From contig JAGBCQ010000025.1 in the NCBI GenBank assembly GCA_017937925.1, positions 1 to 38,923 on the forward strand: a stretch of DNA of 38,923 nt. Reading direction: 5' to 3'. This DNA is from Paraprevotella sp. (GTDB lineage Bacteria > Bacteroidota > Bacteroidia > Bacteroidales > Bacteroidaceae). Made by a program: the position numbers and the translations under genes. Shown in pieces: positions 1,645 to 28,310 of this stretch; the stretch's first letter is position 1, and the number at the start of each line of letters is the position of its first letter. Under the pieces are notes generated by a model, which was given only the letters and a program-made list of their open reading frames with translations, was not told the DNA's origin and did not search any database.

Positions 1645-1742
1645 ATGATTGTCGTTACCCCATCGAGTCACATGCGTGACACGAACGTGTCACGTGTGTG
1701 ACTCCATAGGGACACGTGTGTGACACGAACGAGTAACGACAA
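1645..1742. repeat. 22-bp-periodic GTNAC array between convergent genes (array 1)
   Basis: GTNAC five-mers start at 1654, 1667, 1676, 1689, 1698, 1711 (degenerate, GACAC), 1720 and 1733. The steps are 13, 9, 13, 9, 13, 9 and 13, an exact 22-bp period with two sites per unit. Within it, 1665-1704 is a near-perfect 40-bp palindrome. The array is framed by a 10-bp perfect inverted repeat, TTGTCGTTAC (1649-1658) and GTAACGACAA (1733-1742). Eight-base spacers alternate between ACGAACGT-like and CCATCGA/CCATAGG-like forms. It sits between two terminators and is not coding. Confidence 0.85.
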
Positions 1743-1790
1743 AATCGGACTGACTTTTTATCAAAGAGTGAGGTGGATAGTGTTGATACT

Positions 1791-1827
1791 TTAAATGCCC
1801 TTTAACCGATGATTAAAGGGCATTTAA
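1791..1827 (-). terminator. Perfect 15-bp hairpin closing the minus-strand msrC operon
   Basis: TTAAATGCCCTTTAA (1791-1805) and TTAAAGGGCATTTAA (1813-1827) form a perfect 15-bp stem with a 7-base loop. It starts 18 bases beyond the msrC stop codon. The minus-strand side has no long U-tract, so it may work as a weak or bidirectional terminator or as an mRNA 3'-end stabiliser. Confidence 0.65.
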
Positions 1828-1845
1828 TAAGTATAGTTTCTTTTA

Positions 1846-2325
1846 TTATAACTGCTTGCAAAGTATCTCGCAAACTTGTTCCAATCCTTTCCGGTCGGTC
1901 TCGTCAAAGTCGTTCAACCGGTCGCTATCAATGTCAAGTACACCTTTTATTTCACCATTGACGGTGAGGGGGACGACTATTTCAGAGCGCGAGAGTGAAC
2001 TGCAGGCGATGTGGCCGGGGAACTGCTCCACGTCGGGAACCAGTTGTGTTTGTCCTTCCGCCCATGCTGTACCGCAAACACCGCGTCCTTTACGGATGCG
2101 GTAACACGCGACGCTTCCTTGGAATGGACCTAATATCAGTTCTTCTCCTTTTACCAAATAAAAACCTACCCAAAAGAAATCGAAGGCTTCTTTTAGAGCG
2201 GCAGCTGTGTTTGCCAATATGCTTATTTCTTCCTTCTCGTCGCTTATCAGTCGCTCGTAGTCGGTAAGGAACACTTTATAGCGTTCCTCTTTATCGGTCG
2301 TTGTTTGTTTAAAACTTGCTTCCAT
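1846..2325 (-). CDS. msrC: Free methionine-(R)-sulfoxide reductase (GAF domain, fRMsr)
   Basis: A 159-residue cytoplasmic protein that is a single GAF domain of the YebR/MsrC type. It reduces free methionine-(R)-sulfoxide with thioredoxin as electron donor. The three redox cysteines are Cys74, Cys84 and Cys108; their spacing (10 and 24) matches Cys84, Cys94 and Cys118 of the E. coli enzyme. The family core GFYLVKGEELILGPFQG and the SEIVVPL strand are present. The start codon overlaps the stop codon of the upstream nucleoside phosphorylase (TGATG at 2323-2327), so the two are translationally coupled. Thioredoxin reductase is encoded elsewhere in the window (16283). Length and motifs are normal for the family. 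Confidence 0.93.
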   Translation of the reverse strand: MEASFKQTTTDKEERYKVFLTDYERLISDEKEEISILANTAAALKEAFDFFWVGFYLVKGEELILGPFQGSVACYRIRKGRGVCGTAWAEGQTQLVPDVEQFPGHIACSSLSRSEIVVPLTVNGEIKGVLDIDSDRLNDFDETDRKGLEQVCEILCKQL

Positions 2326-3203
2326 CAGATTCTGTCAAGTGCCAACTTAATTAAATTGTCTATTTGATTTTTGTAGCCGGTATTGGCTTCGCCTGCCACT
2401 CTGTTGGCTATTACCATGCAGCATGTGGTGGCTTTGTGTCCCATCAGTCGTGCCAGTCCGGCCAACGCTGAACTTTCCATTTCAAAATTGGTGATTTGAT
2501 AACCGTTAAAGTTGAATGTCACGACTTTCTCATTCTGAGTAGGGTCGGTCAGTGGGATGCGGAGCTGTCTGCCTTGTGGCCCGTAAAATCCTCCGCAAGC
2601 AATTGTTACACCTCTTACCATATCGTTGGCCGCGATGCGTTCTATTAGTTCTGCGTCTGCATCGATGACGTATGGAGCAGGAGCGCACATGTTACCGCTC
2701 CAACCCAAATGTTTGAGAAGGGCTTGTTCCATTGGTATGTCACACACTTCGTTGCGCCCTTGATAGAAATTGAGCAGACCATCGAAACCAACGGATTTAA
2801 CCGAACAGATAAATGTGCCGACCGGTGTGTAGGGTTGCAATCCTCCGCAAGTCCCGATTCGTAAAATCTCCAACGAACGCAATTCGTCTTTCTCTGTCCG
2901 TGTTGTGAAGTCGATGTTTGCCAATGCGTCAATTTCATTCATCACAATGTCGATGTTGTCGCAACCAATTCCGGTGGAAATCACCGTAATGCGTTTGCCT
3001 TTATAAGTTCCGGTTATTGTTCTGAACTCACGACTGGATATGTCACATTCTTGTGTGTCAAAATGTGATGCCACCATGGGTACTCTACCCGGATCGCCTA
3101 CGAGTATGACTTTGTCTGCTAAATTTTCCGGTTTGATATGAAGGTGGAAAATACTACCATCCGCGTTAATGATGAGTTCGGATTCTGCAAATCTTTTTTT
3201 CAT
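2325..3203 (-). CDS. Nucleoside phosphorylase (uridine/purine nucleoside phosphorylase superfamily)
   Basis: A 292-residue cytoplasmic enzyme of the PNP_UDP_1 superfamily, which splits nucleosides with phosphate into free base and pentose-1-phosphate. Visible signatures are the N-terminal phosphate-binding GDPGRV (residues 37-42), the glycine-rich IGTCGGL in the middle and FEMESSAL near residue 240, which carries the nucleoside-binding Met-Glu pair. The sequence does not decide between uridine and purine specificity. It lies 29 bases downstream of the PD40 gene and is coupled to msrC. A nupG-like nucleoside importer at 28453 could supply substrate, though it is not linked. Confidence 0.9.
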   Translation of the reverse strand: MKKRFAESELIINADGSIFHLHIKPENLADKVILVGDPGRVPMVASHFDTQECDISSREFRTITGTYKGKRITVISTGIGCDNIDIVMNEIDALANIDFTTRTEKDELRSLEILRIGTCGGLQPYTPVGTFICSVKSVGFDGLLNFYQGRNEVCDIPMEQALLKHLGWSGNMCAPAPYVIDADAELIERIAANDMVRGVTIACGGFYGPQGRQLRIPLTDPTQNEKVVTFNFNGYQITNFEMESSALAGLARLMGHKATTCCMVIANRVAGEANTGYKNQIDNLIKLALDRI

Positions 3204-3232
3204 AAGCGTTGTGTTTTAGGTTTCTGAGTATT

Positions 3233-4486
3233 TTATTTGTTCAAAGCCTCTATCTCTGCGTTACGGATTCTTTTGGTCAAATCGTTGAGGTAGGCTTCGT
3301 TCTTTTCTAATTCAGTTTCATCTTTCATGATGTGCGGTGCCATTTTGGCTTTTTGTTTGGCGTCGCTTTTGCCGTAAGTCTCTCTGAGAACGTCCAGACT
3401 TCTCGTTAAGGAAATGTTCTGCTTGTTGGCATGAATCCATTCGTTTATAAGTTTTTTGGCTGTGTCCGACTTGAAGTCTGTTGGGTTGTAGTAGGTCAGA
3501 TGGTCGTTGATGATGAACTGAAACATGGTTGTTTTCTTGTCCGAATTCCAACTGCTCCTCACGGTATTCAATCTCTCTTTTGCTTCGTTCACATAGGTTT
3601 GGTCGCCCCATGTCTCGGCAATGCTGTGTATGAGCGCAAGTCGGCCCATCTCCTCTTCCGTATAAAGACGTGTGTCGTATTGCTTTCTTACATTGTTAGG
3701 GATAAATACGTATATACATACTTTACCTTCCGGCTGATTGCGGTCGGAAACGAACCATCCCAATGCGTTAAACTCGTCAATGGCAAACATATAGTCGTTG
3801 GCGGGGGAGTTGAATGGCATTCCTAAATTTTCGGGTTGCAGGTACTTGTTCTCATCCGAATCGTATCTTGTAACAAAGATGTCGTACCCTCCAATACTTT
3901 CTTCTCCTTGAGCGGCGTAATATAATGTGATGCCGTCGGCCATGACATACGGATAGTTTTGAATACTGTCGCTATCCAATTCGGAAATTTGCTTGTGTAT
4001 GTTCCATTCGCTGTCTTCGCAATCACTGTAATGCAGTTTGAGGTTGCCCGATTCATCGCCTTTGGCTAACCAGATTCTTTCTCCTATTTCCGGTTTGTAT
4101 ATCATTGCGCCGGTCGTGTCATTCTGATTGTCGAAGAAAGTCTGAGCCTGAATAATCCGTCCGCACTCATCGCCCAAAGCGATGTGTTTGAAAAAATCTT
4201 TTTTTGATACCACCATACTGTCAATGAAGGTGACACGTTCCGTTGCGCTCATGATGGAACGCAGACGGTCAATCTCCTCAAGTTTCGTTTCTTGACTTTG
4301 AGTCGGTTTGCGACGTCTTTTAAGATTCTTGATTTCTTTTTCCAACACTTCTTCCGCTTTCTCAAACATGTACTTGTCAATGTAAGTTTGTGCGTCTATG
4401 GTCGGAGTCTCTTGCTTTTTCTTCTGCGCTGCGGCAGGGAGGGTGAGCAATGTGAAAAGAGTGAGTATATAAATAATGTGTTTCAT
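3233..4486 (-). CDS. Secreted PD40 (WD40-like beta-propeller) protein of unknown role
   Basis: A 417-residue protein with a signal peptide (about residues 1-20, ending AAA-Q). A charged helical segment follows (about 30-100). A PD40-type blade region spans about 150-280, with motifs such as NYPYVMADGITLYYAA, GGYDIFVTR and LGMPFNSPANDYMFAID that are typical of periplasmic WD40-like repeats. The last 140 residues are helical and rich in Lys and Glu. PD40 proteins in Bacteroidota are found in envelope complexes (PorE of T9SS and OmpA-linked proteins), but no OmpA domain or lipobox is seen here. A near -7 box (TACCTTTA on the minus strand, near 4520) lies upstream. The gene sits between the ttcA-like and nucleoside phosphorylase genes. 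Its function cannot be assigned. Confidence 0.8.
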   Translation of the reverse strand: MKHIIYILTLFTLLTLPAAAQKKKQETPTIDAQTYIDKYMFEKAEEVLEKEIKNLKRRRKPTQSQETKLEEIDRLRSIMSATERVTFIDSMVVSKKDFFKHIALGDECGRIIQAQTFFDNQNDTTGAMIYKPEIGERIWLAKGDESGNLKLHYSDCEDSEWNIHKQISELDSDSIQNYPYVMADGITLYYAAQGEESIGGYDIFVTRYDSDENKYLQPENLGMPFNSPANDYMFAIDEFNALGWFVSDRNQPEGKVCIYVFIPNNVRKQYDTRLYTEEEMGRLALIHSIAETWGDQTYVNEAKERLNTVRSSWNSDKKTTMFQFIINDHLTYYNPTDFKSDTAKKLINEWIHANKQNISLTRSLDVLRETYGKSDAKQKAKMAPHIMKDETELEKNEAYLNDLTKRIRNAEIEALNK

Positions 4487-4609
4487 AACCTTATGATTTC
4501 AACATTGATATGTAAAGGTATTATTTTTTCTATTAGATTGTATCGTTCTCTTATATAAATTAAGAAACTTCAAGCAAAAAATAGTTTTGTTTGTAGTGTA
4601 TAACGATGA

Positions 4610-5344
4610 TTATGGGCGCTCTATCAGTTTGTCTTCTTGTTCCAAAGCATTCCAAAACGAGTGTCGTGCCTCAGGGTTCATCCGCTCTATTGTTTCAAAG
4701 ACGTTCTTCATGTCTGTACGGTGAGAATCACTTTCGTACGGACAACTCTTCTTTTGTTTTTGATATGCTCTCACCGCGCTCCATGCAGTAAGGTCACATT
4801 CGTGTACCAAACAAAGCGGACGGATGATGGTTATGGGGAACTTTCGCATTTCAAGCAGTGCCGGCATGGTGGAGAATTGTCCTTGAAAAGACAGATTGAG
4901 TAATGTCGTATGTATGATGTCGTCCTGATGATGTCCCAAAGCGATTTTGTTGCATCCCAAGTCCTGCGCTACTGTAAATAATGTTTTTCGTCTGTTCCAT
5001 GAGCAAAGGAAGCATGGACTTTTCCTTTTGTCGGTGCTAGGATCAAAGGCGGTTTCTTTAATGATGAGCGGTACTCCAAGGTTGGCGCAAAAATCCTTAA
5101 GATAGGATGTGTCACTTTCGTAAGCGATGTTAGTCATTCTTACGTGGAGTGCGGAAAGGCGTATCTGGGGGCGGTGTATATTGGCACGCTTCACCATAAA
5201 CTCAAGCAAGGCCAAAGAGTCTTTGCCTCCGGACAGCCCGATAAGTATGTGGTCGCCGTCTTGAAGAAGTCCGTATTGTGTGACCCCTTTATTGAAATGT
5301 TTCCATATCCGCCTTTCTAACAATTGCTCCTCGGTCAGCTTCAT
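4610..5344 (-). CDS. ttcA: TtcA-like tRNA 2-thiolation enzyme (PP-loop ATPase, Fe-S)
   Basis: A 244-residue member of the TtcA/TilS PP-loop family. TtcA adenylates and thiolates cytidine 32 of some tRNAs using a [4Fe-4S] cluster. The ATP-binding loop SGGKDS is at residues 38-43. The cluster cysteines are in CFLC (Cys111, Cys114), with a distal Cys201 in the motif SCPYES, matching the three-cysteine pattern of TtcA. The GHHQDD motif is at 137-142. It starts 9 bases downstream of the DUF486 gene on the same strand, so the two are probably co-transcribed. The length is at the short end for the family. Modification of a different tRNA position cannot be excluded. Confidence 0.88.
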   Translation of the reverse strand: MKLTEEQLLERRIWKHFNKGVTQYGLLQDGDHILIGLSGGKDSLALLEFMVKRANIHRPQIRLSALHVRMTNIAYESDTSYLKDFCANLGVPLIIKETAFDPSTDKRKSPCFLCSWNRRKTLFTVAQDLGCNKIALGHHQDDIIHTTLLNLSFQGQFSTMPALLEMRKFPITIIRPLCLVHECDLTAWSAVRAYQKQKKSCPYESDSHRTDMKNVFETIERMNPEARHSFWNALEQEDKLIERP

Positions 5345-5353
5345 GTCCGGATG

Positions 5354-5719
5354 TTATAAGAATACGAAATAAACGGCCAAAATCAAGCAGATGAATGCGA
5401 CGAGGTGGTTCCAATGAAGTGACTCGCCTTGGAACATTACTGTGGCAATAACCGTAAAGACTATCAGGGAAATAACTTCTTGAATCACTTTCAACTGCAT
5501 CAGCGTGAAAGGACCACCATTGCCAATAAAACCTATCCTGTTTGCAGGTACTTGACAGCAATACTCGGCAAATGCTATAATCCATGAAAACAGTATGACG
5601 CCAATGAGTGGCCAATTGCTGGAAACACCTGTTTGCTGTAGTTTTAGATGCCCGTACCATGCCAATGTCATGAAGATGTTACTGCTGATGAGTAGTAATA
5701 TGGTGTATAGTATGTTCAT
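5354..5719 (-). CDS. Four-helix membrane protein, DUF486/DMT family
   Basis: A 121-residue, very hydrophobic protein with four predicted membrane helices (about residues 3-20, 36-54, 68-95 and 102-121). The central segment, AEYCCQVPANRIGF, followed by a short loop to LMQLKVIQE, is the hallmark of the DUF486 family, placed among small drug/metabolite transporters. No substrate is established for the family. It precedes the ttcA-like gene by 9 bases. Its upstream region holds the MITE-like element at 5764-5913, so its native promoter may have been displaced; no clear TAnnTTTG box lies between the element and the start. Confidence 0.85.
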   Translation of the reverse strand: MNILYTILLLISSNIFMTLAWYGHLKLQQTGVSSNWPLIGVILFSWIIAFAEYCCQVPANRIGFIGNGGPFTLMQLKVIQEVISLIVFTVIATVMFQGESLHWNHLVAFICLILAVYFVFL

Positions 5720-5763
5720 TTGATGCTTTATTTAAGTTGTTTTGGTGTCGGTCTCTACTTAAA

Positions 5764-5913
5764 GAGGGTGTGTAAAAATAGATGTTGGCTACCATTTTGT
5801 CATTTTGAAAGAGCGAAGCGATGAGAACTTTCCTTTGCTAAAGTTGAAAATCCTCCATTCGGTCTTGAATGACGCATTACTTTGATAGCGTGTTTCTATT
5901 TTAACACACCCTC
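5764..5913. mobile_element. MITE-like element, about 150 bp, with 19-bp terminal inverted repeats
   Basis: GAGGGTGTGTAAAAATAGA at 5764-5782 is matched in inverted orientation by 5895-5913 (18 of 19 positions). The interior has no gene. It contains a subterminal inverted pair around GTCATT (5800s, and 5870s on the other strand), suggesting the whole unit can fold on itself. A clear target-site duplication is not visible. The size, the paired ends and the absence of an ORF fit a non-autonomous derivative of an insertion sequence; the parent element is not in the window. Confidence 0.75.
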
Positions 5914-5934
5914 CTTTTCTATTTGTTCATTATC

Positions 5935-8295
5935 TTACTTTTGTAAGTATTCGTGCATACTGCTTGCGGCCTTACGTCCGTCGCCCATAGCAAGGATTAC
6001 AGTGGCTCCTCCGCGAACAATATCACCACCGGCAAAAATTGTCGGTATGTTTGTTTGCATACTGTCATTAACTACGATAGTATTCTTACGTCCAAGTTCA
6101 AGACCTTCAATGGATGTCGGTACGATAGGGTTGGGCGAAACACCAACGGCAACGATTGCCATGTCGATATCTATCGTTTCAGTAGCACCCGGTATTGGTT
6201 CCGGACTGCGACGTCCGCTTGCATCAGGCTCACCCAATTGCATTTTCTGAAGAATGACTTGCTTGACAGCTCCCTTCTCGTCAGCGATATATTCCAATGG
6301 GTTGTGCAAAGTTAAGAATTCAATACCTTCCTCTTTGGCATGCTTAACCTCTTCCAAACGTGCCGGCATCTCTGCCTCCGAACGACGGTAAACGATGAAG
6401 ACGCGTTCGGCACCTAAGCGCTTGGCTGTACGGCAAGAGTCCATAGCAGTATTTCCACCGCCCACAACCATTACGTTGCGTGCTATATGGATAGGAGTGT
6501 CGGTTTCCGGGTTAGAGGCATCCATCAAATTGACGCGTGTCAAATACTCATTACTTGACATGATGTTGATGCTGTTCTCACCGGGGATTCCCATGAAATT
6601 GGGCAGACCGGCACCGGAACCAACGAAGATGCCCTTAAAGCCTTTTGCTTCAAGTTCCTTAACGCTGATAGTCTTGCCTACTAAGCAGTCCTTCTCAAAT
6701 TTAACACCGATTTTTTCCAAACTTTGTATCTCTACGTCCACAATTTTGTTAGGCAAGCGGAACTCAGGGATACCATATTTTAATACACCGCCAATCTCGT
6801 GCAGTGCTTCGAAAACAGTCACGTCATATCCGTATTTTGCCATATCGCCGGCAAAAGAGAGGCCTGCAGGACCCGAACCGATGACTGCAATCTTAATGCC
6901 ATTTGCAGGAGCACATTCAGGGAGTGAACTCATACCGCTTTCGCGTTCATAGTCGGCTGCGAAACGCTCCAAATAACCTATGGCTACTGCCGGTTCGTTC
7001 ATCTTCAAATGGATACACTTGCTTTCGCATTGCTTCTCTTGAGGACAGACACGTCCGCAAACGGCAGGCAATGCCGATGTGCTTTTCAAGACGCGAGCTG
7101 CATTAAGGAATTCGCCTCTTTCTATATTCTTGATAAAAGAAGGAATGTTGATGCTTACGGGGCAACCTTGCATACAAGTTGGGTTGGCACAGTCCAAACA
7201 ACGTTTTGCCTCTGTCATGGCTTGCTCTGCCGTCAAACCCATATTAACTTCTTCTGTACGGGTTGTTGCACGATATACAGGGTCAAGTTCCGGCATAGAA
7301 ACACGATGAATGGCTGTACGCTCTTTCGGTTTCATTGTTTTTCTGATTTCCTGACGCCATTCGGCATTGCGGTCGGTGAGTACGGCCAATGGTGTTGTTG
7401 TGTCCATTTTGTCCGTATCTAATGCTTTTTCTGTAGGAATGGCCTTACAATCAGCAGCTTCGTCGTGTGTGTCAGTGTGTTCATTTAAGTGTTCCATGTC
7501 TTCCATTTCTTCTTTCTTGAACGCACCCATACGTTTCAACATTTCGTCAAAATCTACTTGATGACCATCGAACTCAGGACCATCAACACATACGAAACGA
7601 GTCTTTCCTCCCACTGAGATACGGCACGCACCGCACATACCGGTACCATCTACCATGATGGTGTTCAGTGATACGTCTGTAGGTATTTCATATTTTTTTG
7701 TGAGCAGACAGCAGAATTTCATCATGATGGCAGGGCCAATGGCGAAGCACTTGTTGACGGTCTCGCGTTTGATGACGCTCTCAATACCTTCGGTTACCAA
7801 ACCTTTGTTGCCATAACTGCCATCATCTGTCATAATGATGACTTCATCCGAACTCTTACGCACTTCATCTTCGAGGATAATCAAATCCTTTGTTCTTCCT
7901 GCAAGGACAGAAATGACACGGTTACCGGCTGCTTTTAATGCTTGTATGATAGGAAGCATGGGGGCAACACCGACACCCCCTCCGGCGCATACCACTGTTC
8001 CGAAATTATCAATGTGTGTTGCTTTTCCTAATGGTCCGACAACGTCTGTTATATAATCGCCTTCGTTGAGGTTACATAGTTTGGTTGAAGACAGACCGAC
8101 TTTCTGTACAACAAGTGTGATTGTACCCTTTTCGGTGTCAGCACCGGCAATGGTTAATGGCATACGTTCGCCTTTTTCGCCAACGCGAACTATCACAAAA
8201 TGTCCGGCTTTACGAGCTTTGGCTATCAGTGGAGCCTCAATCTCAAACTTATAGACTTTTTCAGAAAACTGTGATTTGGAAACAATCTTGTTCAT
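5935..8295 (-). CDS. Fused NfnA-NfnB-type oxidoreductase (DHODB-like electron-transfer subunit + GltD-like subunit)
   Basis: A 786-residue cytoplasmic flavoprotein. Residues 1-250 are a ferredoxin-reductase-like FAD/NAD module with GGGVGVAPM (105-113) and a [2Fe-2S] site with Cys221, Cys224 and Cys236 plus the nearby Asp216. Three Cys and one Asp is the ligand set described for NfnA. A charged linker of about 80 residues (258-335) joins it to a GltD-like module with two cysteine clusters (Cys367, Cys370, Cys374, Cys378 and Cys413, Cys417, Cys423, Cys427), an FAD motif GSGPAGLS (473-480) and an NADPH motif GGGNTAMD. Nfn enzymes bifurcate electrons between NADH, ferredoxin and NADPH; the same gene is often named a glutamate synthase small subunit. 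There is no GltB large subunit nearby, which favours the Nfn role. It lies 32 bases after serS on the same strand. Confidence 0.87.
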   Translation of the reverse strand: MNKIVSKSQFSEKVYKFEIEAPLIAKARKAGHFVIVRVGEKGERMPLTIAGADTEKGTITLVVQKVGLSSTKLCNLNEGDYITDVVGPLGKATHIDNFGTVVCAGGGVGVAPMLPIIQALKAAGNRVISVLAGRTKDLIILEDEVRKSSDEVIIMTDDGSYGNKGLVTEGIESVIKRETVNKCFAIGPAIMMKFCCLLTKKYEIPTDVSLNTIMVDGTGMCGACRISVGGKTRFVCVDGPEFDGHQVDFDEMLKRMGAFKKEEMEDMEHLNEHTDTHDEAADCKAIPTEKALDTDKMDTTTPLAVLTDRNAEWRQEIRKTMKPKERTAIHRVSMPELDPVYRATTRTEEVNMGLTAEQAMTEAKRCLDCANPTCMQGCPVSINIPSFIKNIERGEFLNAARVLKSTSALPAVCGRVCPQEKQCESKCIHLKMNEPAVAIGYLERFAADYERESGMSSLPECAPANGIKIAVIGSGPAGLSFAGDMAKYGYDVTVFEALHEIGGVLKYGIPEFRLPNKIVDVEIQSLEKIGVKFEKDCLVGKTISVKELEAKGFKGIFVGSGAGLPNFMGIPGENSINIMSSNEYLTRVNLMDASNPETDTPIHIARNVMVVGGGNTAMDSCRTAKRLGAERVFIVYRRSEAEMPARLEEVKHAKEEGIEFLTLHNPLEYIADEKGAVKQVILQKMQLGEPDASGRRSPEPIPGATETIDIDMAIVAVGVSPNPIVPTSIEGLELGRKNTIVVNDSMQTNIPTIFAGGDIVRGGATVILAMGDGRKAASSMHEYLQK

Positions 8296-8327
8296 TGTCT
8301 TATTTAGTTATGTTAATGTATTTCTTA

Positions 8328-20517: not shown

Positions 20518-20549
20518 CGCTTTTTATGAGCAGCAAGTGAATTTAGTAT

Positions 20550-21128
20550 ATGACAGGAGATAAGAAAACGGTGATATATTCGCGCAACACGATTGAATTC
20601 GTGACAGTAGCGACGGAGTTTTGTGCTTACCTTGAGGGAACTGAAGGAAAACTACGCAAGGAATTTGTTGATACTGTGTTGAAACTTCTTCCGCTTTTAT
20701 ATTTGAAGGCATCAATGTTAGAACGCATAGAGAGTGATACCGAATTTTTGCCAGAAGCATTTGTTACAGAGCAGGATTATGAATTTCTGCGATTGACGCT
20801 GTCCGGTGTGATGGCTACCGAAGACGATTATCTTGATTTATGTAATGAGGCCGTTCGTTTTGACGACGAACCAATGGTAAAAAATATTTCCGAAGATTTA
20901 GCGGATATTTATCAAGCGTTGAAAAATTTTGTAGAAACTTATCGGTTGGGACTTGAAGATAATATGTACGAGGCAACAGCCGAGATAGCTCAATCATTTA
21001 GTATGTATTGGGGGCAGACACTAACCAATGCGATGCGAGCTTTGCACCGTGTCAAATATTCGTTCTCGGACGAAGATGACGAGTGTTTCAGTGATGATGA
21101 ATACGGAAGTTATGAGGGAAATCTATAG
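20550..21128 (+). CDS. DUF5063-like cytoplasmic protein
   Basis: A 192-residue acidic, mostly helical protein with no signal peptide or membrane helix. The body reads like the DUF5063 family of Bacteroidota, of unknown function: VATEFCAYLEG near the start, LKLLPLLYLKASML in the middle and AEIAQSFSMYWGQTLTNAMRALH near the end. The tail is very acidic (SDEDDECFSDDEYG). Its 3' end overlaps the start of the exonuclease gene by 17 bases, and the two genes are probably translationally coupled, suggesting a shared nucleic-acid task. That link is inference only. Confidence 0.8.
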   Translation: MTGDKKTVIYSRNTIEFVTVATEFCAYLEGTEGKLRKEFVDTVLKLLPLLYLKASMLERIESDTEFLPEAFVTEQDYEFLRLTLSGVMATEDDYLDLCNEAVRFDDEPMVKNISEDLADIYQALKNFVETYRLGLEDNMYEATAEIAQSFSMYWGQTLTNAMRALHRVKYSFSDEDDECFSDDEYGSYEGNL

Positions 21129-21756
21129 CAATTACGATAAGAAAAAGATAGCCAACCTTCCGCGTGCAGTGTTCGACGGTAGAATTATAGTTATTCAAAC
21201 TGAAAACGAAGCGCAGAAGGCGGTTGATTATTTGTCTTCCTTTTCTCTTGTCGGAATTGATACTGAGACGCGTCCTTCTTTTAAGAAAGGGGTGTCACAC
21301 AAAGTGTCTTTGTTGCAGCTCTCTACGGATGACACTTGTTTCCTGTTCCGATTAAAGCATATTGGCATACCGGAATCCTTAATACGTTTTTTCCAAGATG
21401 AGCGGATTACTAAGATAGGACTTTCCTTACATGACGATTTACTCTCTTTGCGTCGGCGTGGTGAGTTCGAACCACGTTCGTTCTTGGATTTACAACAATA
21501 TGTCAAGGCGTTTGGAATTCAGGATATGAGTTTACAGAAAATTTACGCCAACGTCTTCGGCCAGAAAATATCTAAAGGACAACGACTTTCCAATTGGGAG
21601 GCAGATGTTTTGACAGACGGACAGAAATTGTATGCAGCCACCGATGCTTGGGCTTGTATCAAGCTCTATCGTGAGTTGGAAACATTGAAAAAAACAAATG
21701 AATACCGATTGATAAAGCAGTCGGAAGTGGGCGGCAGCACAGAAATAGAAAAGTAA
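21112..21756 (+). CDS. 3'-5' exonuclease, DEDDy type (RNase D/WRN-like)
   Basis: About 214 residues. Exo I is VGIDTETRPSF with Asp50 and Glu52; Exo II is IGLSLHDDLLSL with the third acidic residue; Exo III is YAATDAWACIKLY, whose Tyr-x3-Asp makes it DEDDy. The fold is that of the WRN/RNase D exonuclease domain, standing alone without a helicase or HRDC domain. The substrate (DNA or structured RNA) is not decided by sequence. I place the start at 21112 (MREIYSN); ATGs at 21094 and 21097 and the open frame back to 21028 lie inside the DUF5063 gene. It lies 7 bases before rlmI. Confidence 0.85.
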   Translation: MREIYSNYDKKKIANLPRAVFDGRIIVIQTENEAQKAVDYLSSFSLVGIDTETRPSFKKGVSHKVSLLQLSTDDTCFLFRLKHIGIPESLIRFFQDERITKIGLSLHDDLLSLRRRGEFEPRSFLDLQQYVKAFGIQDMSLQKIYANVFGQKISKGQRLSNWEADVLTDGQKLYAATDAWACIKLYRELETLKKTNEYRLIKQSEVGGSTEIEK

Positions 21757-21763
21757 CAGTATT

Positions 21764-22948
21764 ATGATGTATAAGAATTTATATTTAAGACGAGGTAAAG
21801 AAGAAAGCCTAAAGCGTTTTCATCCTTGGATATTCTCAGGTGCTATTCATCACATTGAGGGTGAACCGGAGGAAGGCGAAGTGGTAAGAGTACTTACTGC
21901 TGAGGGTAAGTTTATTGCGGTCGGCCATTGGCAGATAGGTTCTATTGCCGTGAGAGTACTCGACTTCGACGATCGCAATATTGATGCAGAGTATTGGGAA
22001 GAACGCATAAAAGTGGCTGTGGAAGCAAGACGTACAATAGGCGTATTAGGACGTGACGACAATGATATGTTCCGATTGGTCCATGGCGAGGGCGATGGAT
22101 TGCCGGGCTTGATTATAGATGTTTATGGCAAGACGGCTGTCATGCAGGCACATAGTGTAGGAATGCACGTGTCACGTTTTGATATAGCGAATGCTGTTGT
22201 TAAGGCAACATCGGGGATGGTGGAGAATGTCTATTATAAGAGCGAAACGACTTTGCCTTATAAAGCCGATTTAGGACAAGAAAATGGTTTTATTGTTGGT
22301 GGCAGCAATGAGAACGTTGCTTTGGAGAACGGATTGAAATTTCACATTGATTGGTTAAAAGGTCAGAAGACCGGCTTTTTTGTCGATCAGCGCGACAACC
22401 GTTCACTGCTTGAACAATACTCAAATGGTCGTTCGGTGTTGAATATGTTTTGTTATACCGGTGGTTTCAGTGTCTATGCCATGCGTGGAGGTGCCAAATT
22501 GGTACATTCGGTCGATAGCTCGGCAAAGGCCATTGATTTGACCAATAATAATATAGCATTGAACTTCCCCGGCGACCAACGTCATGAGGCATACGCAGAA
22601 GATGCGTTCAAGTATTTGGATGCGATGGGAAGCAATTACGATTTGATAATTCTTGACCCGCCGGCATTCGCAAAGCACAAAGACGCATTGCGACAAGCAT
22701 TAAAAGGTTATACACGTTTGAACGCGAAGGCTTTTGAGAAGATTAAGCCGGGCGGTATTCTCTTTACATTCAGTTGCTCACAAGTTGTTACAAAGGACAA
22801 TTTCCGTACTGCCGTTTTCTCGGCAGCGGCACAGAGTGGGCGCAGAGTGCGCATCTTGCATCAGTTGCATCAACCTGCTGATCATCCTATCAATATTTAT
22901 CATCCAGAAGGAGAATATTTGAAAGGTTTAGTGCTCTATGTAGAGTGA
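21764..22948 (+). CDS. rlmI: 23S rRNA m5C methyltransferase RlmI-like (PUA + SAM domain)
   Basis: A 394-residue enzyme with an N-terminal PUA-like RNA-binding domain (about 1-75, with RFHPWIFSGAI), a middle domain and a C-terminal Rossmann methyltransferase. SAM-binding VLNMFCYTGGFSVYA is at 225-239, the catalytic-loop motif ILDPPAFAK at 296-304 and FSCSQVV near 336-342. RlmI methylates cytosine 1962 of 23S rRNA in E. coli; Bacteroidota orthologues are usually assigned to the same group. Length is normal. It is the last gene of the operon that starts at 20550. No hairpin terminator is evident directly after it. Confidence 0.9.
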   Translation: MMYKNLYLRRGKEESLKRFHPWIFSGAIHHIEGEPEEGEVVRVLTAEGKFIAVGHWQIGSIAVRVLDFDDRNIDAEYWEERIKVAVEARRTIGVLGRDDNDMFRLVHGEGDGLPGLIIDVYGKTAVMQAHSVGMHVSRFDIANAVVKATSGMVENVYYKSETTLPYKADLGQENGFIVGGSNENVALENGLKFHIDWLKGQKTGFFVDQRDNRSLLEQYSNGRSVLNMFCYTGGFSVYAMRGGAKLVHSVDSSAKAIDLTNNNIALNFPGDQRHEAYAEDAFKYLDAMGSNYDLIILDPPAFAKHKDALRQALKGYTRLNAKAFEKIKPGGILFTFSCSQVVTKDNFRTAVFSAAAQSGRRVRILHQLHQPADHPINIYHPEGEYLKGLVLYVE

Positions 22949-23005
22949 TTTTTGTTGAGAAAAACGAAAAAATGTTAAAAGTACACTTATTTTTTTGTGA
23001 GAGTA

Positions 23006-23035
23006 TTTGCATATTAAAAAAATCTCGTACCTTTG
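23006..23035 (+). promoter_or_regulatory. Bacteroidota promoter of a candidate small RNA
   Basis: TTTG (23006-23009), an 18-base spacer and TACCTTTG (23028-23035). It is followed within 75 bases by a terminator and by no gene, so it should drive a short RNA. Confidence 0.7.
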
Positions 23036-23040
23036 TAACG

Positions 23041-23110
23041 TGTTTTTCATGGTATTAGATTTAAGGTTAATGAAAGATTGGTTGTCGTGATGACAACCTT
23101 CTTTTTTTTT
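23041..23110 (+). ncRNA. Candidate stand-alone small RNA of about 70 nt
   Basis: The unit runs from the predicted start just after the TACCTTTG box to a terminator hairpin, GGTTGTC (23080-23086) with GACAACC (23092-23098) and loop GTGAT, then nine T residues (23102-23110). AAGGTT at 23063-23068 can pair instead with AACCTT at 23095-23100, giving two exclusive folds. A 13-codon ATG frame (from 23050, ending MKDWLS) runs into the hairpin. The form (alternate-consensus promoter, compact body, terminator) resembles the published Bacteroidales-1 RNA class, but I cannot confirm membership by eye. Confidence 0.6.
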
Positions 23111-23326
23111 GTGCCTGTTTGAACTTGCCTGTTAATTACTTATCAATCTTATTCTTTCCTGATGTTTAGGCGTTGCCTTAAAGTATTCCTTATTTATATA
23201 ATATGCCTATCTTTCTTTTAAGAAATCCCTTTATATATATTAAATAAGGTATTTAGTATTTTATTTAAATTCTCTTCAAACACCATTTTCCCTTTATTAA
23301 AAAAATGATGTTTTGTTCTCACAAAA

Positions 23327-23432
23327 TTATCGTGCTGATACCATCGAAGTGACAGACGTCCGTCATCGTGATGAGAACGGTCCGTCGTCGCGACGGCGGA
23401 CGTCCGATATTTTTGCTCGGAACGCACGATAA
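23327..23432. repeat. 22-bp-periodic GTCCG array (array 2)
   Basis: GTCCG occurs at 23358, 23380 and 23402, exactly 22 bp apart. The second sub-site of the unit, ATCGAAGT, ATCGTGAT and GTCGCGAC, starts at 23343, 23365 and 23387, again 22 bp apart. The segment includes the perfect palindrome CGGACGTCCG (23397-23406). It is framed by a 9-bp perfect inverted repeat, TTATCGTGC (23327-23335) and GCACGATAA (23424-23432). The core is much richer in G+C than its flanks and is not coding. Confidence 0.8.
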
Positions 23433-23512
23433 AAAGATGTAAAGATATTTTTCATTTTTATTACTAAAGTTACAAGAATTAAGGCAATACTTATATTATT
23501 ACTAATTAAAGC

Positions 23513-23542
23513 GGGTTTGCAAACTTTTTGCAAACCCTTTTT
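23513..23542 (+). promoter_or_regulatory. Perfect TTTGCAAA hairpin just upstream of the regulator promoter
   Basis: GGGTTTGCAAA (23513-23523) and TTTGCAAACCC (23527-23537) pair perfectly with a 3-base loop and are followed by five T residues. It could be a terminator of an upstream transcript or an operator. It holds two copies of the palindrome TTTGCAAA and ends where the -33 region of the next promoter begins. Confidence 0.6.
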
Positions 23543-23543
23543 G

Positions 23544-23574
23544 TTGTGCCTTGTCCGTTGATTACCTAAATTTG
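23544..23574 (+). promoter_or_regulatory. Promoter of the membrane-bound regulator gene, giving a nearly leaderless mRNA
   Basis: TTG (23544-23546), a 20-base spacer and TAAATTTG (23567-23574). The ATG is at 23582, so initiation about five bases after the -7 box would leave almost no 5' untranslated region. Confidence 0.65.
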
Positions 23575-23581
23575 TGGCACT

Positions 23582-24631
23582 ATGAAGATGAAAGGATTTA
23601 TTTTATTATGTGCTATAGGAGCACTCTTATGCGGATGTGTGAAGCAGACCGAACGAGCGCCATTCAAGATGCGTGGGGCGTGGATTTTGACACAAGAGTT
23701 ATTACCTACAGGAGAATCTATCGATTATCCCATTGAAGGGCGAACTGAAATGCGCATTTATAGTAGCGACAGTGTGTTTTACTTTTGTGTAATGAAAAGT
23801 ATGAAACCCGAGCAAGAACTCGAGAACATCAAGAACGCAACGGATGTTATTGTCACGCCTGCCGGTCGTGTGGACTTTACATTAGTGGATATGGGACACG
23901 ATGGTAAGGCATATTCTGAGAATGGAAGACCCAAACCGCTCACTGTGCTCAATGATACGACGGTGGTCATACAGTCGATGGGAGTGAAAGGTACATGGAA
24001 ACAAGCGTATGCGATGCCGCAGGCACGAATCGACGAGATAAAGAATATTATAGTAGGAGCAATGGGCAAGGAACGAGCCCAAAACTTTGTGCTTTCATCT
24101 GTTGAATGTCAATTGAAAACTTTCAATCATGTGCTTCTCATTCTAGTCATTATCTTAGTTTTATTCATTGCGCTCATCGGTAATATTATGGTAGGAGTCT
24201 ATCGCAAGAAAGAAAACATTGAAATGCAAATGAAACAGATTAAAGAAGAACGTGAGCAACGTCCACAACCTGTGCGACAAGTCATGCAAGCGGTGGAAGA
24301 GGATTTCTTCTGCTCGGATTACTATAGGGCGCTTTGCAAGAAAGTGGCTTCGGGCGTGATGTTGAGAGAGGACGATTGGAACGAGATAGAAGAACGTTTA
24401 AAGCCCGTTTATCCCGGTTTTAGCAGCCGCCTTTATGGCTTGTGCCGGATGTCCGAATTGGAATACCATGTGTGTCTGCTGATAAAGTTACGCATTGCGC
24501 CGTCGGAAATGGCATCAGTATTGAGTAAGGATGTCAGTACCATCAGTACGGTGCGCAGCCGTCTTTATCACAAAGTGTTCGGGAAGAAGGGCAAATCGAA
24601 GGATTGGGACGACTTTGTCAACTCTTTATGA
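23582..24631 (+). CDS. Membrane-spanning one-component transcription regulator (periplasmic sensor + cytoplasmic LuxR-like HTH)
   Basis: A 349-residue protein. The N-terminus is a lipoprotein-like signal (LLCGC, Cys19) or an uncleaved anchor. Residues 20-180 form a periplasmic domain with a lipocalin-like GAW start (32-34) and the motif YSENGRP (111-117) to KGTW (136-139). One strong membrane helix spans 183-206. A charged coiled coil (208-230), a linker and a C-terminal helix-turn-helix follow: MSELEYHVCLLIKLRIAPSE (290-309), then VSTISTVRSRLYHKVFGKKG (318-337), the GerE/LuxR-like layout of Bacteroidota regulators. Signal and DNA binding thus sit in one chain across the inner membrane. It heads a unit with a secreted paralogue of its sensor domain and an outer-membrane barrel, which it probably controls. 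No named family is recognised; the ligand is unknown. Confidence 0.8.
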   Translation: MKMKGFILLCAIGALLCGCVKQTERAPFKMRGAWILTQELLPTGESIDYPIEGRTEMRIYSSDSVFYFCVMKSMKPEQELENIKNATDVIVTPAGRVDFTLVDMGHDGKAYSENGRPKPLTVLNDTTVVIQSMGVKGTWKQAYAMPQARIDEIKNIIVGAMGKERAQNFVLSSVECQLKTFNHVLLILVIILVLFIALIGNIMVGVYRKKENIEMQMKQIKEEREQRPQPVRQVMQAVEEDFFCSDYYRALCKKVASGVMLREDDWNEIEERLKPVYPGFSSRLYGLCRMSELEYHVCLLIKLRIAPSEMASVLSKDVSTISTVRSRLYHKVFGKKGKSKDWDDFVNSL

Positions 24632-24674
24632 TTGGCAAATAGTTGGCATCCGACATTGCCAATGTTTTGCCAAT
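24631..24674. promoter_or_regulatory. Nested TTGGCA/TGCCAA inverted repeats, candidate operator
   Basis: Immediately after the regulator stop codon, ATTGGCAAA (24631-24639) and TTTGCCAAT (24666-24674) form a perfect 9-bp inverted repeat. Between them TTGGCA (24643-24648) and TGCCAA (24657-24662) form a second one. Four half-sites in the order forward, forward, reverse, reverse precede the promoter of the next gene. There is no T-run, so a terminator is unlikely. Confidence 0.55.
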
Positions 24675-24681
24675 AGAAAAG

Positions 24682-24713
24682 CTTGGCGACCTTTGTTCAT
24701 GGTTATACTTTTG
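24682..24713 (+). promoter_or_regulatory. Promoter of the secreted sensor-domain gene
   Basis: TACTTTTG (24706-24713) fits the -7 consensus; CTTG (24682-24685) is a degenerate -33 box with a 20-base spacer. The ATG is at 24746. Confidence 0.55.
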
Positions 24714-24745
24714 TATCGACAAAATCAATTATTAACGCTTAAATC

Positions 24746-25252
24746 ATGAAAGAAATGAGAAGATTATTTGTAATGGTTGTATTGACAGTTTGTGTTTATG
24801 GAATGACGGCACAAACCACCGACAAGAACCTTTTAGGAGTTTGGCTGGCGGAGTCGATGCAATATGATGGTGAGAGGAAAATCGTTTGTGGCGATGAAGC
24901 CGGATTCGTTACCTTAAAGTATTATGGCGAGGATGGTGAGTATGCTTGCGTATTTTTTGTACGCGGAGAAAACGGAGAATATTTGATGCAGGCACATGAA
25001 TATGGAACCTATACATATAAGAATGGTGTCTATTCAGAGATGGGACGTCCGGCGGGAGGCCCCGACGCGTTGGTCATGGTAGATAAAAATACCTTCAAAG
25101 GTCGCTGGTTCAACCGTAGCGACGTGTGGAAAAAGCAGAACAATATGTCGAAGAAACTCCTCGATTATATCTTGGAAACGCTCAGACGTGAGCACCAAAT
25201 CTCTTCCACTGAACTTCAGAATTTGATAAGGCGGGATGTCTTCCGCAAATAA
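24746..25252 (+). CDS. Secreted protein homologous to the regulator's sensor domain
   Basis: A 168-residue exported protein with a signal peptide (about 1-23, ending MTAQ) and no lipobox. The mature part starts with a lipocalin-like GVW (31-33) and carries YSEMGRP (96-102) and KGRW (118-121). These line up in order and spacing with YSENGRP and KGTW of the regulator at 23582, so the two periplasmic domains look paralogous. A short basic helical tail (about 134-168) replaces the regulator's membrane and DNA-binding part. It could be a soluble ligand carrier, a decoy or a co-sensor; none of these is established. It starts 114 bases after the regulator and ends 24 bases before the barrel gene. 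Confidence 0.75.
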   Translation: MKEMRRLFVMVVLTVCVYGMTAQTTDKNLLGVWLAESMQYDGERKIVCGDEAGFVTLKYYGEDGEYACVFFVRGENGEYLMQAHEYGTYTYKNGVYSEMGRPAGGPDALVMVDKNTFKGRWFNRSDVWKKQNNMSKKLLDYILETLRREHQISSTELQNLIRRDVFRK

Positions 25253-25276
25253 GCAAATCAGCTAACACTTAGGTTA

Positions 25277-28189
25277 ATGAAAAAGTTGGTTTATGTCCTG
25301 CTCCTGACCTTAATGGTTGGGAGTAGGGCTGCTTATGCTCAATCAGAGAAAGGTCGTACCGTAGCCCTTTGGGGACACGTGAAGAACTCGTTGACAAAAG
25401 TCGGAATCCCTGACACCAAAATAACTTTGATGGATGCGGACAGTACGACGATAGATACGATGACAGTTTGGACCAATAGTTATAATGCCACCAAAATAGA
25501 TGCTTCTTATCGCTTCAAGGTACCGGCAAGGTCGGCAAAGTATATCATCAAGGCAACACATCCTGATTATGATGATTGCTATGTGGACTTTGAGATAAAG
25601 CGAATAGCCCGCAACACCTTTTTCGACGTGCCACACCATTTGATGAACCGCATCGACCCTTCTGTGAAGTGGGAGAAGATGTTGGGCGAAGTGCAGATTA
25701 AGGCGTCCAAGGTAAAGTTGACATACAAAGGCGATACCATTATCTACAATGCCGATGCTTTCAAACTGCCCGAAGGTTCGATGTTGGACGCACTTATTCG
25801 TCAGTTGCCGGGAGTGGAACTGAGCGATGATGGCGTCATCAAAGTCAATGGCGTACAAGTGGATTATCTGACACTGAACGGAAAGGACTTCTTTAAGGGA
25901 AAGAACAAAATCATGTTGGAGAATCTGCCCAACTATACGGTAAAGGATGTCCGCGCCTATCATAAGACGTCGGCATTGACGGTATGGATGGGACGTGAGA
26001 TGGAGAAAAAAGATTATGTGATGGATGTTACATTAAAACGTGAGTACAGTAAGGGATACATTACGAACGTCGGTGTGGCGGGCGGAACGCACGACCGCTA
26101 TTTGGCGCGGCTCTTCGGAATGCGCTACACGGACAATTCGCGACTCACCGTTTTCGGTAACTTGAACAACGTGAACGAATCGCGTAAACCCGGCAGCAAA
26201 GGAGAGTGGTCGCCTTCGAATATGCCGGAAGGGCAGCAAACCACCAAACATGCCGGCATCGACTTGATGATAGACGATAAGGACAAGCGTTTCTTGGAGA
26301 GCGGAAACATTGAACTGATGCACACCGGTTATACCAATATTATCCAGTCGGCGAGCGAGTCATTCCTGAGCGATGGAACCAGTTACACCCGTATGTACGA
26401 CAACTCCAATGGCAAAAGACTTCGGCTGTCCGGAAAAAATGAGTTCACATGGAATAATGATAAGTATCGATGGTTTACCAACTTAGGCGCCAACTATAAC
26501 AAGAGCGAGAGTTCGGGATTGAATGTAAAAGGAACATTCAATTCGGACCCAACGGTAATCGGTACGACCATGCAAGTATTGGATTCGCTTTATGCCCTGA
26601 CCTTGAATCCCGAATTACAAGCCATGACGCTTAACCGTCGCCGTTCCAATACGTTGGACAACGGGCGAACATTGGACTTTAATTGGTACACCCATTTGAC
26701 AAGGAAACGCAAGAACGGAGATAATTGGCAAATCGCATTCGAGGGTGACAGTCATGACTCGAAGGTCAGACAGTATAGTATAAACTCTACCGACTATCTT
26801 AAAGAGGCTGACAGAAACGACTATCGCAACGAGTTCTTGGAGATGCCCGAGAATAAGCGCCGTTTCAATCCTTGGGCTGAGTATGAACTTCATTGGTTGA
26901 ATAATTGGAACTTTAAGATGATTTACGGTTACAACCATACCAATTCAAGCAAAACGAACGGACATTACAGGTTCGACCGATTTAATGATTGGGCAAACGA
27001 CGACCTTCATCCCATAGGCGTTTTGCCTTCGACGCGTGATTCCATGCTTATGGCTATCGATGGCAATAACAGTTATGACTATAACCTATTACAGCGACAA
27101 CACGATATATTCTTTACACCGAACTACTCCAAAGAAAAGGATGGCACATACATCTCGTTCAGAGCGTGGATTCCCTTTAAGCATATCACGCAGGAGTTGG
27201 ATTATCACAGTGCGTCGTTAGACACGTGCGTGTCGCAGCGAAGGTGGACGTTTGAACCTCAAATCAATTTTGCTTGTTACACTGATAACTACAAACGAAG
27301 CTTCAATTTCAGTTATAATATGGAAATGCCATTGCCGTCGCTCTATCAGAAATTGGATATCACCAACGATGCCAATCCGCTGAACATCCGCAAGGGTAAT
27401 CCGAACTTAAAGGGAAGCATGACACACCGAATACAGATGAGTGTGGGACTGAACAAACCGGAAAAACAACAATGGTTGAATGTCACTTACGGACTTCGCT
27501 TCTTCCTCAATCAGGTGTCGCAAGGCTATACGTTCAATGCCACTACGGGAGCTTACACCTTTATGCCCGAAAACGTGGACGGCAATTGGCAGACGTATGT
27601 TTATACAACTTTCGGCCGGGCTATCGATAAAGAGAAACGTTGGCGTTGGAGCACTACGACACATGTCGATTACACCAGAAATGTTGATATTACAGCCGTT
27701 GAGGGCACCGTAAGCTCGGCGCTGAGTAAAGTGGATAATTGGTATGCTAACGAACGCTTGTCGCTCGACTACCATTTTAATAAGTTGCGTGCCGGCATCA
27801 ATGGCGGTGTGTCCTATCGTCATGCTGTGGGCAACAGGCGCGACGTGCAAAGGGTGAGCGCCTTTGATTTCAATTATGGTTTTACCTGCAATTACGAGTT
27901 GCCTTGGCAGATTATACTCGCCACGGACATGAAGATGTTCTCACGTCGCGGATACGGCGAATCGTCAATGAACACGGACGACCTGATATGGAATATGTCT
28001 GTCTCCAGAGCATGGCTCAAAGGGAAACTCACTAGTCGCCTCGAAGGTTTTGACCTGTTGAATCAAGTGTCCGGCAATTCCATCACCATTAACGGACAAG
28101 GGCGCACTGAGGTGCATCGCAATGCCTTGCCACGCTATGTCATGTTGCATCTGGCGTACAACTTCAGTGTGATGCCGAAGAAGCGATAG
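25277..28189 (+). CDS. Outer-membrane beta-barrel protein with CarboxypepD_reg-like and plug-like domains
   Basis: A 970-residue protein. Signal peptide about 1-22 (AAYA-Q). Residues 28-115 look like a carboxypeptidase-regulatory beta-sandwich. Residues 140-250 resemble a TonB-receptor plug (YKGDTIIYNADAFKLPEGS, LIRQLPGVELSDDGVIKVNG, LTLNGKDFF). The rest is a long run of aromatic-rich beta-strands ending in a terminal strand near LHLAYNFSV, as in the OMP_b-brl_3 family of Bacteroidota. No SusD partner follows, so a SusCD-type glycan importer is unlikely; members of this family have no established substrate. It lies 24 bases after the secreted sensor paralogue, so it is probably in the same transcript. 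Uptake of a peptide, metal complex or small molecule is possible. Confidence 0.82.
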   Translation: MKKLVYVLLLTLMVGSRAAYAQSEKGRTVALWGHVKNSLTKVGIPDTKITLMDADSTTIDTMTVWTNSYNATKIDASYRFKVPARSAKYIIKATHPDYDDCYVDFEIKRIARNTFFDVPHHLMNRIDPSVKWEKMLGEVQIKASKVKLTYKGDTIIYNADAFKLPEGSMLDALIRQLPGVELSDDGVIKVNGVQVDYLTLNGKDFFKGKNKIMLENLPNYTVKDVRAYHKTSALTVWMGREMEKKDYVMDVTLKREYSKGYITNVGVAGGTHDRYLARLFGMRYTDNSRLTVFGNLNNVNESRKPGSKGEWSPSNMPEGQQTTKHAGIDLMIDDKDKRFLESGNIELMHTGYTNIIQSASESFLSDGTSYTRMYDNSNGKRLRLSGKNEFTWNNDKYRWFTNLGANYNKSESSGLNVKGTFNSDPTVIGTTMQVLDSLYALTLNPELQAMTLNRRRSNTLDNGRTLDFNWYTHLTRKRKNGDNWQIAFEGDSHDSKVRQYSINSTDYLKEADRNDYRNEFLEMPENKRRFNPWAEYELHWLNNWNFKMIYGYNHTNSSKTNGHYRFDRFNDWANDDLHPIGVLPSTRDSMLMAIDGNNSYDYNLLQRQHDIFFTPNYSKEKDGTYISFRAWIPFKHITQELDYHSASLDTCVSQRRWTFEPQINFACYTDNYKRSFNFSYNMEMPLPSLYQKLDITNDANPLNIRKGNPNLKGSMTHRIQMSVGLNKPEKQQWLNVTYGLRFFLNQVSQGYTFNATTGAYTFMPENVDGNWQTYVYTTFGRAIDKEKRWRWSTTTHVDYTRNVDITAVEGTVSSALSKVDNWYANERLSLDYHFNKLRAGINGGVSYRHAVGNRRDVQRVSAFDFNYGFTCNYELPWQIILATDMKMFSRRGYGESSMNTDDLIWNMSVSRAWLKGKLTSRLEGFDLLNQVSGNSITINGQGRTEVHRNALPRYVMLHLAYNFSVMPKKR

Positions 28190-28200
28190 AAGAAACACCG

Positions 28201-28310
28201 TCACGAACCCCCTTTTGTGTACTCTTGTGTACATTTTTGTGTACACTTGAGTACATTTTTGTGTACGCCTGAGTACATTTTTGTGTACGGCCGAGGGGAT
28301 TCTTGCGTAC
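28201..28310. repeat. Five 22-bp units with paired GTAC sites (array 3)
   Basis: GTAC starts at 28219, 28229, 28241, 28251, 28263, 28273, 28285 and 28307. The steps are 10, 12, 10, 12, 10, 12 and 22; the missing site at 28295 reads GGGG in an otherwise matching unit. The unit is therefore 22 bp with the layout GAGTACATTTTTGTGTAC plus four variable bases. The array starts 11 bases after the barrel gene's stop codon and ends 142 bases before the nupG-like gene. It is too T-rich and regular to be coding. Confidence 0.88.

What the first reader, a model, noticed from the sequence alone, without database searches (positions are those of the whole stretch)
1645..28310. Three intergenic arrays share a 22-bp period but not a sequence
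Seen directly: in 1645-1742, 23327-23432 and 28201-28310 the repeated words differ (GTNAC, GTCCG, GTAC), yet each array has an exact 22-bp period with two sub-sites per unit (13+9 in array 1, 10+12 in array 3, and two sub-sites in register in array 2). Arrays 1 and 2 are also framed by perfect inverted repeats of 10 and 9 bp, and both contain CCATCGA next to a GT-AC word. All three lie outside genes. About 22 bp is two turns of DNA, so sub-sites would fall on one face. Inference: an uncharacterised family of intergenic elements whose architecture is conserved while the word changes per locus, as in multimer-binding sites or evolving satellite-like repeats.
Basis: partly seen in the sequence, partly recalled or inferred. 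Interest (0 to 1): 0.78.

Follow-up and report, generated by a model that had tools for sequence, protein, structure and literature searches.

The report
Intergenic hairpin arrays with 22-bp ruler
A gut bacterium carries dozens of short hairpin-forming DNA elements between its genes whose sites sit exactly 22 base pairs apart although the site sequences differ, and many relatives do the same with other sequences, which suggests that something in the cell measures the spacing rather than the letters.

Summary
The three arrays are real. Each belongs to a dispersed family in a Paraprevotella-like genome: 6, 40 and 12 places at E<=0.01. In 400 kb of that genome, 11 of 13 noncoding tandem arrays have lag 22; five shuffles gave none. 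Spacing is strict: 67 of 70 GGACGTCC pairs lie 22, 44 or 66 bp apart. Elements with array-1-type ends are 94 bp (8) or 50 bp (1), with different inner words; array 2 is 106. Relatives carry such arrays with other words; a few genomes use 23. They fold into hairpins more often than other tandem arrays (42 of 54 against 8 of 46), without transcript-strand bias, and favour convergent gaps (20 of 49 against 48 of 284). Constant-size, variable-sequence 20-23-nt repeats are already described (PMC8161180), and P. gingivalis has a 23-nt MITE minisatellite (PMC4596501): a new variant of a known kind. Best reading: MITE-like palindromic arrays whose evenly spaced sites are read by a multimeric DNA-binding protein, which is inferred, not found.

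The parts
1649..1742 (.). Array 1: 94-bp palindromic element, sites GTCAC-N4-GTGAC every 22 bp
   Evidence: dispersed family; 94-bp frame; orthologue 50 bp in G003
1649..1658 (+). left terminal inverted repeat of array 1 (TTGTCGTTAC)
1733..1742 (-). right terminal inverted repeat of array 1 (GTAACGACAA)
23327..23432 (.). Array 2: 106-bp element, ends of the array-1 type around GACGTC-family sites (chimera)
23355..23360 (.). first GACGTC site of array 2
   Evidence: 44 bp from the site at 23399, family spacing
23399..23404 (.). third GACGTC site of array 2 (the middle site near 23377 is degenerate)
23327..23335 (+). left terminal inverted repeat of array 2 (TTATCGTGC)
23424..23432 (-). right terminal inverted repeat of array 2 (GCACGATAA)
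28213..28311 (.). Array 3: GTAC sites at 10+12 bp spacing (period 22), last site 22 bp on; first to last GTAC 88 bp

Best explanation
The arrays are short dispersed intergenic elements (MITE-like, hairpin-forming) built on a lattice of sites 22 bp apart, in this genome often four intervals (88 bp between outer sites; 94-bp elements, 50-bp short form). SHOWN: dispersal, strict spacing, different words in one register, hairpin symmetry, a period that is largely uniform within a genome (22 or 23), two orthologous copies differing by 44 bp. INFERRED: a multimeric DNA-binding protein acting in trans (a transposase that spread them, or a nucleoid-type protein) occupies one dyad site per two helical turns, so the protein fixes the spacing while words drift together with it; unit number then changes by recombination.
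For: Dispersed copies: 6, 40 and 12 places at E<=0.01 (the 40 is a lower bound, 40 of 45 candidates were scored). Spacing: 67 of 70 GGACGTCC pairs and 37 of 41 TTGTGTAC pairs within 70 bp are at 22, 44 or 66; exceptions 10, 19, 70 and 10, 12, 34, 56. Register shared by different words: 10 of 10 CTACTGAG-to-GGACGTCC distances give centres 22 or 44 apart (it prints 21 and 43 because my formula took off one too many). Frame: 7 of 19 matches to a loose end pattern in held G000 DNA are exactly 94 bp, plus L008 with a mutated end; 8 of 12 GTAC elements share one 88-bp site pattern. Period: 17 of 17 G000 arrays at lags 16-30, 44, 46 not divisible by 3 have lag 22; 1 of 14 genomes mixes 22 and 23 against 5.1 expected, P=0.0004, or 0.023 with at most two arrays per genome. 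Hairpins 42 of 54 against 8 of 46. No sense/antisense stability bias (24 of 48), which favours a DNA role.
Against: No protein was identified. No target-site duplication at 7 array-1-type elements (one with an offset only). No parent transposon found or searched for. Compensatory change in the outer arms of 29 GACGTC elements is not significant (106 of 2000 permutations reach it). Unit palindromy alone is significant in 13 of 58 arrays. Arrays of one genome are partly related by descent, so uniform period is not independent evidence. TRF at score 40 reports indels in 7 of 32 G000 arrays and gives period 23 for 15 of 41 arrays in the other loci. Array 2 (106 bp) breaks the 94-bp frame. 5 of 26 genomes looked at, one with 113 kb, showed no such array.
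Confidence: 0.48

Rival explanations
1. Neutral or selfish minisatellites: replication slippage and hairpin template switching create and homogenise palindromic 22-bp arrays in gaps where nothing is harmed; there is no reader protein.
For: Convergent gaps favoured; divergent gaps rarer than among gaps of at least 150 bp (5 of 49 against 26 of 80, p=0.005), though not rarer than among all gene pairs (46 of 284, p=0.39). Copy number differs by 44 bp between orthologues. Words turn over between species.
Against: Slippage alone does not predict one unit length per genome shared by different words, a fixed 94-bp frame, or dispersed copies.
Confidence: 0.27
2. RNA hairpins: terminators or 3'-end stabilisers transcribed from neighbouring genes; 22 bp is two turns of A-form duplex (recalled helix geometry).
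For: Folding z from -3.7 to -7.8 in ten of ten stretches (both strands of the three window arrays and four chosen others); 42 of 54 arrays with z<-3; convergent gaps.
Against: No sense-strand preference (24 of 48, p=0.16); no terminator-like site inside the three window arrays; no Rfam match on them at gathering score.
Confidence: 0.15
3. REP elements spread by a RAYT (Y1 transposase).
For: Intergenic palindromes in tens of copies.
Against: No Y1_Tnp (PF01797) match in G000 (78.6% complete); a match in 1 of 18 genus genomes.
Confidence: 0.04
4. Chance periodicity or assembly artefact.
For: Array 2 alone is not above chance; the genome is a 33-contig assembly of 78.6% completeness.
Against: 0 hits in five 400-kb sets shuffled within 120-base blocks; other genomes agree.
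Confidence: 0.01

Closest known systems
Constant-size, variable-sequence bacterial tandem repeats (Subirana and Messeguer; PMC8161180: abstract, sections 3.3 and 4 and passages read; their J Bacteriol 2020 paper not held)
   Same: Noncoding, species-specific words, several families per genome, constant size (20-21 or 52 nt; [quoted passage not shown] A protein that polymerises on the DNA is proposed there too.
   Different: There 20-21 or 52 nt in Bacillus; here 22 (23 in some genomes), short elements of 2-5 sites, hairpin symmetry, conserved ends, mixed words in one register. The words Bacteroid- and Prevotella do not occur in its main text.
BrickBuilt MITE of Porphyromonas gingivalis (PMC4596501: abstract, section 5, first part of section 7 and passages read)
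   Same: Bacteroidales, intergenic, 19 copies in one strain, 23-nt tandem repeats, predicted long stem-loops, inverted-repeat ends.
   Different: Long leader and tail and IS5-type ends; no such end (<=2 mismatches) in 45 G000 elements checked (49 were listed, but for four at contig ends the stretch checked did not hold the element). Up to 22.8 repeats there, 2-5 sites here.
REP/BIME elements with RAYT (recalled)
   Same: Dispersed intergenic palindromes.
   Different: No Y1 transposase found in G000; 22-bp lattice.
TAACTGA heptamer repeats (PMC4679880: passages read)
   Same: Intergenic direct repeats, also in five Bacteroidetes.
   Different: Heptamer direct repeats of one fixed word, in one genome mostly just upstream of start codons.

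Membership tests
Constant-size variable-sequence repeats (Subirana and Messeguer) | constant unit size in the 20-23 nt range | tested here: met
   17 of 17 G000 arrays at lags 16-30/44/46 not divisible by 3 have lag 22; two further noncoding arrays have lags 57 and 59
Constant-size variable-sequence repeats (Subirana and Messeguer) | noncoding, species-specific words, several families per genome | tested here: met
   GACGTC element in 1 of 18 genus genomes (own only) and 1 of 118 of the phylum (own only); GTAC array in 2 of 18 and 2 of 60 of the order, the second weak; three families in G000
Constant-size variable-sequence repeats (Subirana and Messeguer) | at least four tandem repeats (methods passage of PMC6749651) | tested here: inconclusive
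   TRF lengths 1.9-4.9 units in G000; GACGTC elements mostly have three sites
MITE | terminal inverted repeats | tested here: met
   10 and 9 bp; related ends on 94-bp elements
MITE | target-site duplication | tested here: not met
   none exact in 7 array-1-type elements; one offset case; not tested for the other two families
MITE | ends shared with an autonomous transposon | not tested
BrickBuilt | IS5-type ends GAGACCTTTGCA | tested here: not met
   0 in 45 elements effectively checked
REP/RAYT | Y1_Tnp transposase in the genome | tested here: not met
   none in G000, 1 of 18 genus genomes; G000 is 78.6% complete

The most novel reading that the evidence does not exclude
A trans-acting, largely word-independent ruler: each such Bacteroidales genome has one factor that recognises dyad-symmetric sites by their 22-bp (or 23-bp) helical spacing, and the words are free to be replaced lineage by lineage, so the elements form a class defined by geometry rather than sequence.
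Probability: 0.28. Interest if true: 0.85.

Novelty: new variant of a known kind. Interest (0 to 1): 0.6.

Why it matters
Repeats of constant size but free sequence are an open puzzle in bacteria. Here the puzzle becomes tractable: a compact frame, exchangeable words, hairpin symmetry, related species with 22 against 23, and orthologous copies of different length give clean substrates and controls to look for the factor that sets the spacing.

Tried and rejected
RNA-level selection: tested by sense against antisense folding, no bias. Compensatory covariation of the outer arms: not significant. Unit palindromy as the universal feature: significant in 6 of 13, 3 of 17 and 4 of 28 arrays (some arrays counted twice there), so hairpin symmetry of the whole array was tested instead. 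RAYT: not found in G000. Phage carriage: the GGACGTCC triple pattern gave 2 viral contigs whose matches look like chance in G+C-rich DNA; the GTAC pattern gave 0. Empty-site comparison in G003: among the 20 contigs and 3 earlier loci, no alignment spanned a GACGTC-family site. My first orthologue printout read minus-strand loci on the wrong side and was redone. The context count held two duplicate elements; searches use a de-duplicated list. What I say about print is limited to ten searches.
Full report
WHERE. The window is a whole contig (C22) of a 2.06-Mb, 33-contig genome, G000, 78.6% complete. The nucleoside symporter beside array 3 matches 'uncultured Paraprevotella sp.' records best (80 and 78% identity), and two same-genus genomes have first contigs of the same lengths as those records (G014 and G149, G006 and G150).

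OBSERVATION. Arrays 1 and 3 have significant 22-bp periodicity; array 2 does not by itself, but belongs to a family that does. Neighbours: array 1 lies between a Big_2-domain gene and a GAF-domain gene, convergent; array 2 after a SAM-methyltransferase gene; array 3 between an outer-membrane barrel gene and the symporter gene.

FAMILIES. BLAST in the own genome gives, at E<=0.01 and counting each place once, 6 places for array 1, 12 for array 3 and 40 for the GACGTC family to which array 2 belongs (query a family member, 40 of 45 candidates scored). Of the 30 loci that one search returned, 29 hold a cluster of at least three sites; successive distances are 22 (or 7+15, where a further GACGTC lies in the spacer), with one extra 30. 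29 elements that could be written in one orientation align without gaps, but that pattern demanded exact spacing. Without that demand, allowing one mismatch per word, 67 of 70 word pairs within 70 bp are at 22, 44 or 66. End words (CTGAGG or CTTTCG type, at least 7 letters alike) sit in register on at least one side in 27 of 29 elements and on both sides in 6 (no chance control was run for this).

FRAME. Of 19 matches to a loose end pattern in held G000 DNA, 7 are exactly 94 bp and one is 50 bp; L008 is also 94 with one end mutated; 200 kb of E. coli gave 3 matches, none of these lengths. The inner words of the 94-bp elements differ: GTCAC/GTGAC, GCATTTGCATCACGCACGTGTA, TCTATAGGCGCACGCACGTGTA. 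8 of 12 GTAC elements share the same 88-bp pattern of sites. Array 2 is 106 bp. TRF lengths in G000 run from 1.9 to 4.9 units, with periods 22 (26), 44 (5) and 23 (1) and indels reported in 7 of 32; in the same genus 22 (8), 23 (3), 46 (1); in the other loci 22 (24), 23 (15), 44 (1), 46 (1). A fixed frame is thus shown for G000 only.

CLOSE RELATIVE. In the closest species found, G003 (symporter 95% and GAF protein 93% identical), the orthologue of array 1 lies at the same place, with one base changed in the left end, but is 50 bp, not 94: two units fewer. The one GTAC match in G003 is in the same neighbourhood as L046 and is also shorter by 44 bp; that contig is 95% identical to G000 where other compared G003 places are about 68-85%, so a contaminant or transferred piece is possible. 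No GACGTC-family match was found in G003 at E<=0.01 (about 70% complete). In G009 and G016 the gap behind the same GAF gene holds a lag-22 array of another word.

SURVEY. Lag scan, 55 compared positions, threshold 7. G000, 438 kb with the window: 13 of 21 arrays have lag 22. Same genus, 66 loci, 556 kb: 17 of 23 at 22, 23, 44 or 46. Other loci, 139, 2.54 Mb (including six loci of the two same-genus records): 28 of 144. E. coli K-12, 200 kb: 0 of 7. By set: one stretch per family of the order, 380 kb, 2 at 22/44 and 2 at 23/46; same class, 346 kb, 1 and 0; records reached through, 293 kb, 6 and 1, with the two same-genus records among them. So the signal is densest in this genus and in other gut Bacteroidales and thin elsewhere; no phylum beyond E. 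coli was controlled. G000 DNA shuffled within 120-base blocks gave no hit in five sets. Period by genome: 22 in most, 23 in G005 (3 of 3), G167 (2 of 2), G002 (1 of 1) and 2 of 3 in G014; 21 of 26 genomes have at least one array at 22, 23, 44 or 46, 5 have none, and single arrays at 16, 19, 20 or 28 occur in five genomes. Mixing of 22 and 23 is rarer than random. Some same-genus lag-22 arrays fall in called ORFs (8 of 18); since 22 is not a multiple of three I take those ORFs as spurious.

STRUCTURE. 42 of 54 arrays at 22/23/44/46 have a folding z below -3 on the better strand, against 8 of 46 at other lags not divisible by 3, 9 of 83 at multiples of 3, and 12 of 80 random mid-gap pieces (one strand only). 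Twelve do not; L114 folds only in a longer stretch. For 48 arrays in tandem gene contexts the transcribed strand is the more stable in 24. Covariation is not significant.

CONTEXT. G000: 20 convergent, 24 tandem, 5 divergent of 49 classified (6 more unclassified), against 48, 190 and 46 of 284 neighbouring gene pairs. Convergent excess p=0.0004, and p=0.007 against gaps of at least 150 bp; divergent deficit p=0.39 and p=0.005. Other genomes: 9, 24 and 4 of 37 classified, no background computed. Genes were called by a simple longest-ORF rule.

KNOWN. Repeats of constant size and variable sequence, 20-23 nt, are in print (PMC8161180), where a polymerising protein or small RNAs are proposed; the 2020 paper it cites could not be read. 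P. gingivalis has a 23-nt MITE minisatellite and reports of 41-, 23- and 22-nt repeats (PMC4596501). In the listings of ten paper searches and the passages read I saw no mention of the fixed 22-bp frame, of mixed words in register, or of 22 against 23 by genome; that is no proof of absence.

READING. I file this as a new variant of a known kind. Best supported mechanism: sites for a multimeric DNA-binding protein in MITE-like carriers. The protein, the mobility and any benefit to the cell are inferred.

Noticed in passing
window 23040-23111: Rfam match to the Bacteroidetes FopS paralogous sRNA family (84.4 bits), upstream of array 2.
   Followed up: no
L147 100-420, L146, L150, L151, L025: Several GACGTC elements are followed by a second repeated module with ATGAAACATGAAACAT arms around CGCGCGCG, perhaps another palindromic family.
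   Followed up: partly
G000 contigs C1, C2, C3, C5, C17, C32: Six contigs start 135 to 621 bp before a GACGTC element, as if assembly broke at repeats that lie next to it.
   Followed up: partly
window 22949-28452: In several relatives (for example G007, G009, G010, G016) the methyltransferase and symporter genes are neighbours; here about 5 kb with arrays 2 and 3 lies between them.
   Followed up: no
L187 4528-4641 and 15875-15986: Tandem repeats of 59 and 57 bp with CTCCCC/GGGGAG words in G000.
   Followed up: no
L001, L002: Two 94-bp elements share similar flanks beyond their ends, so the mobile or duplicated unit may be larger than the array.
   Followed up: partly
L075, L093, L096, L097 and others: Lag-14 arrays of heptamers are common in the other Bacteroidota loci (15 of 144 arrays).
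   Followed up: no
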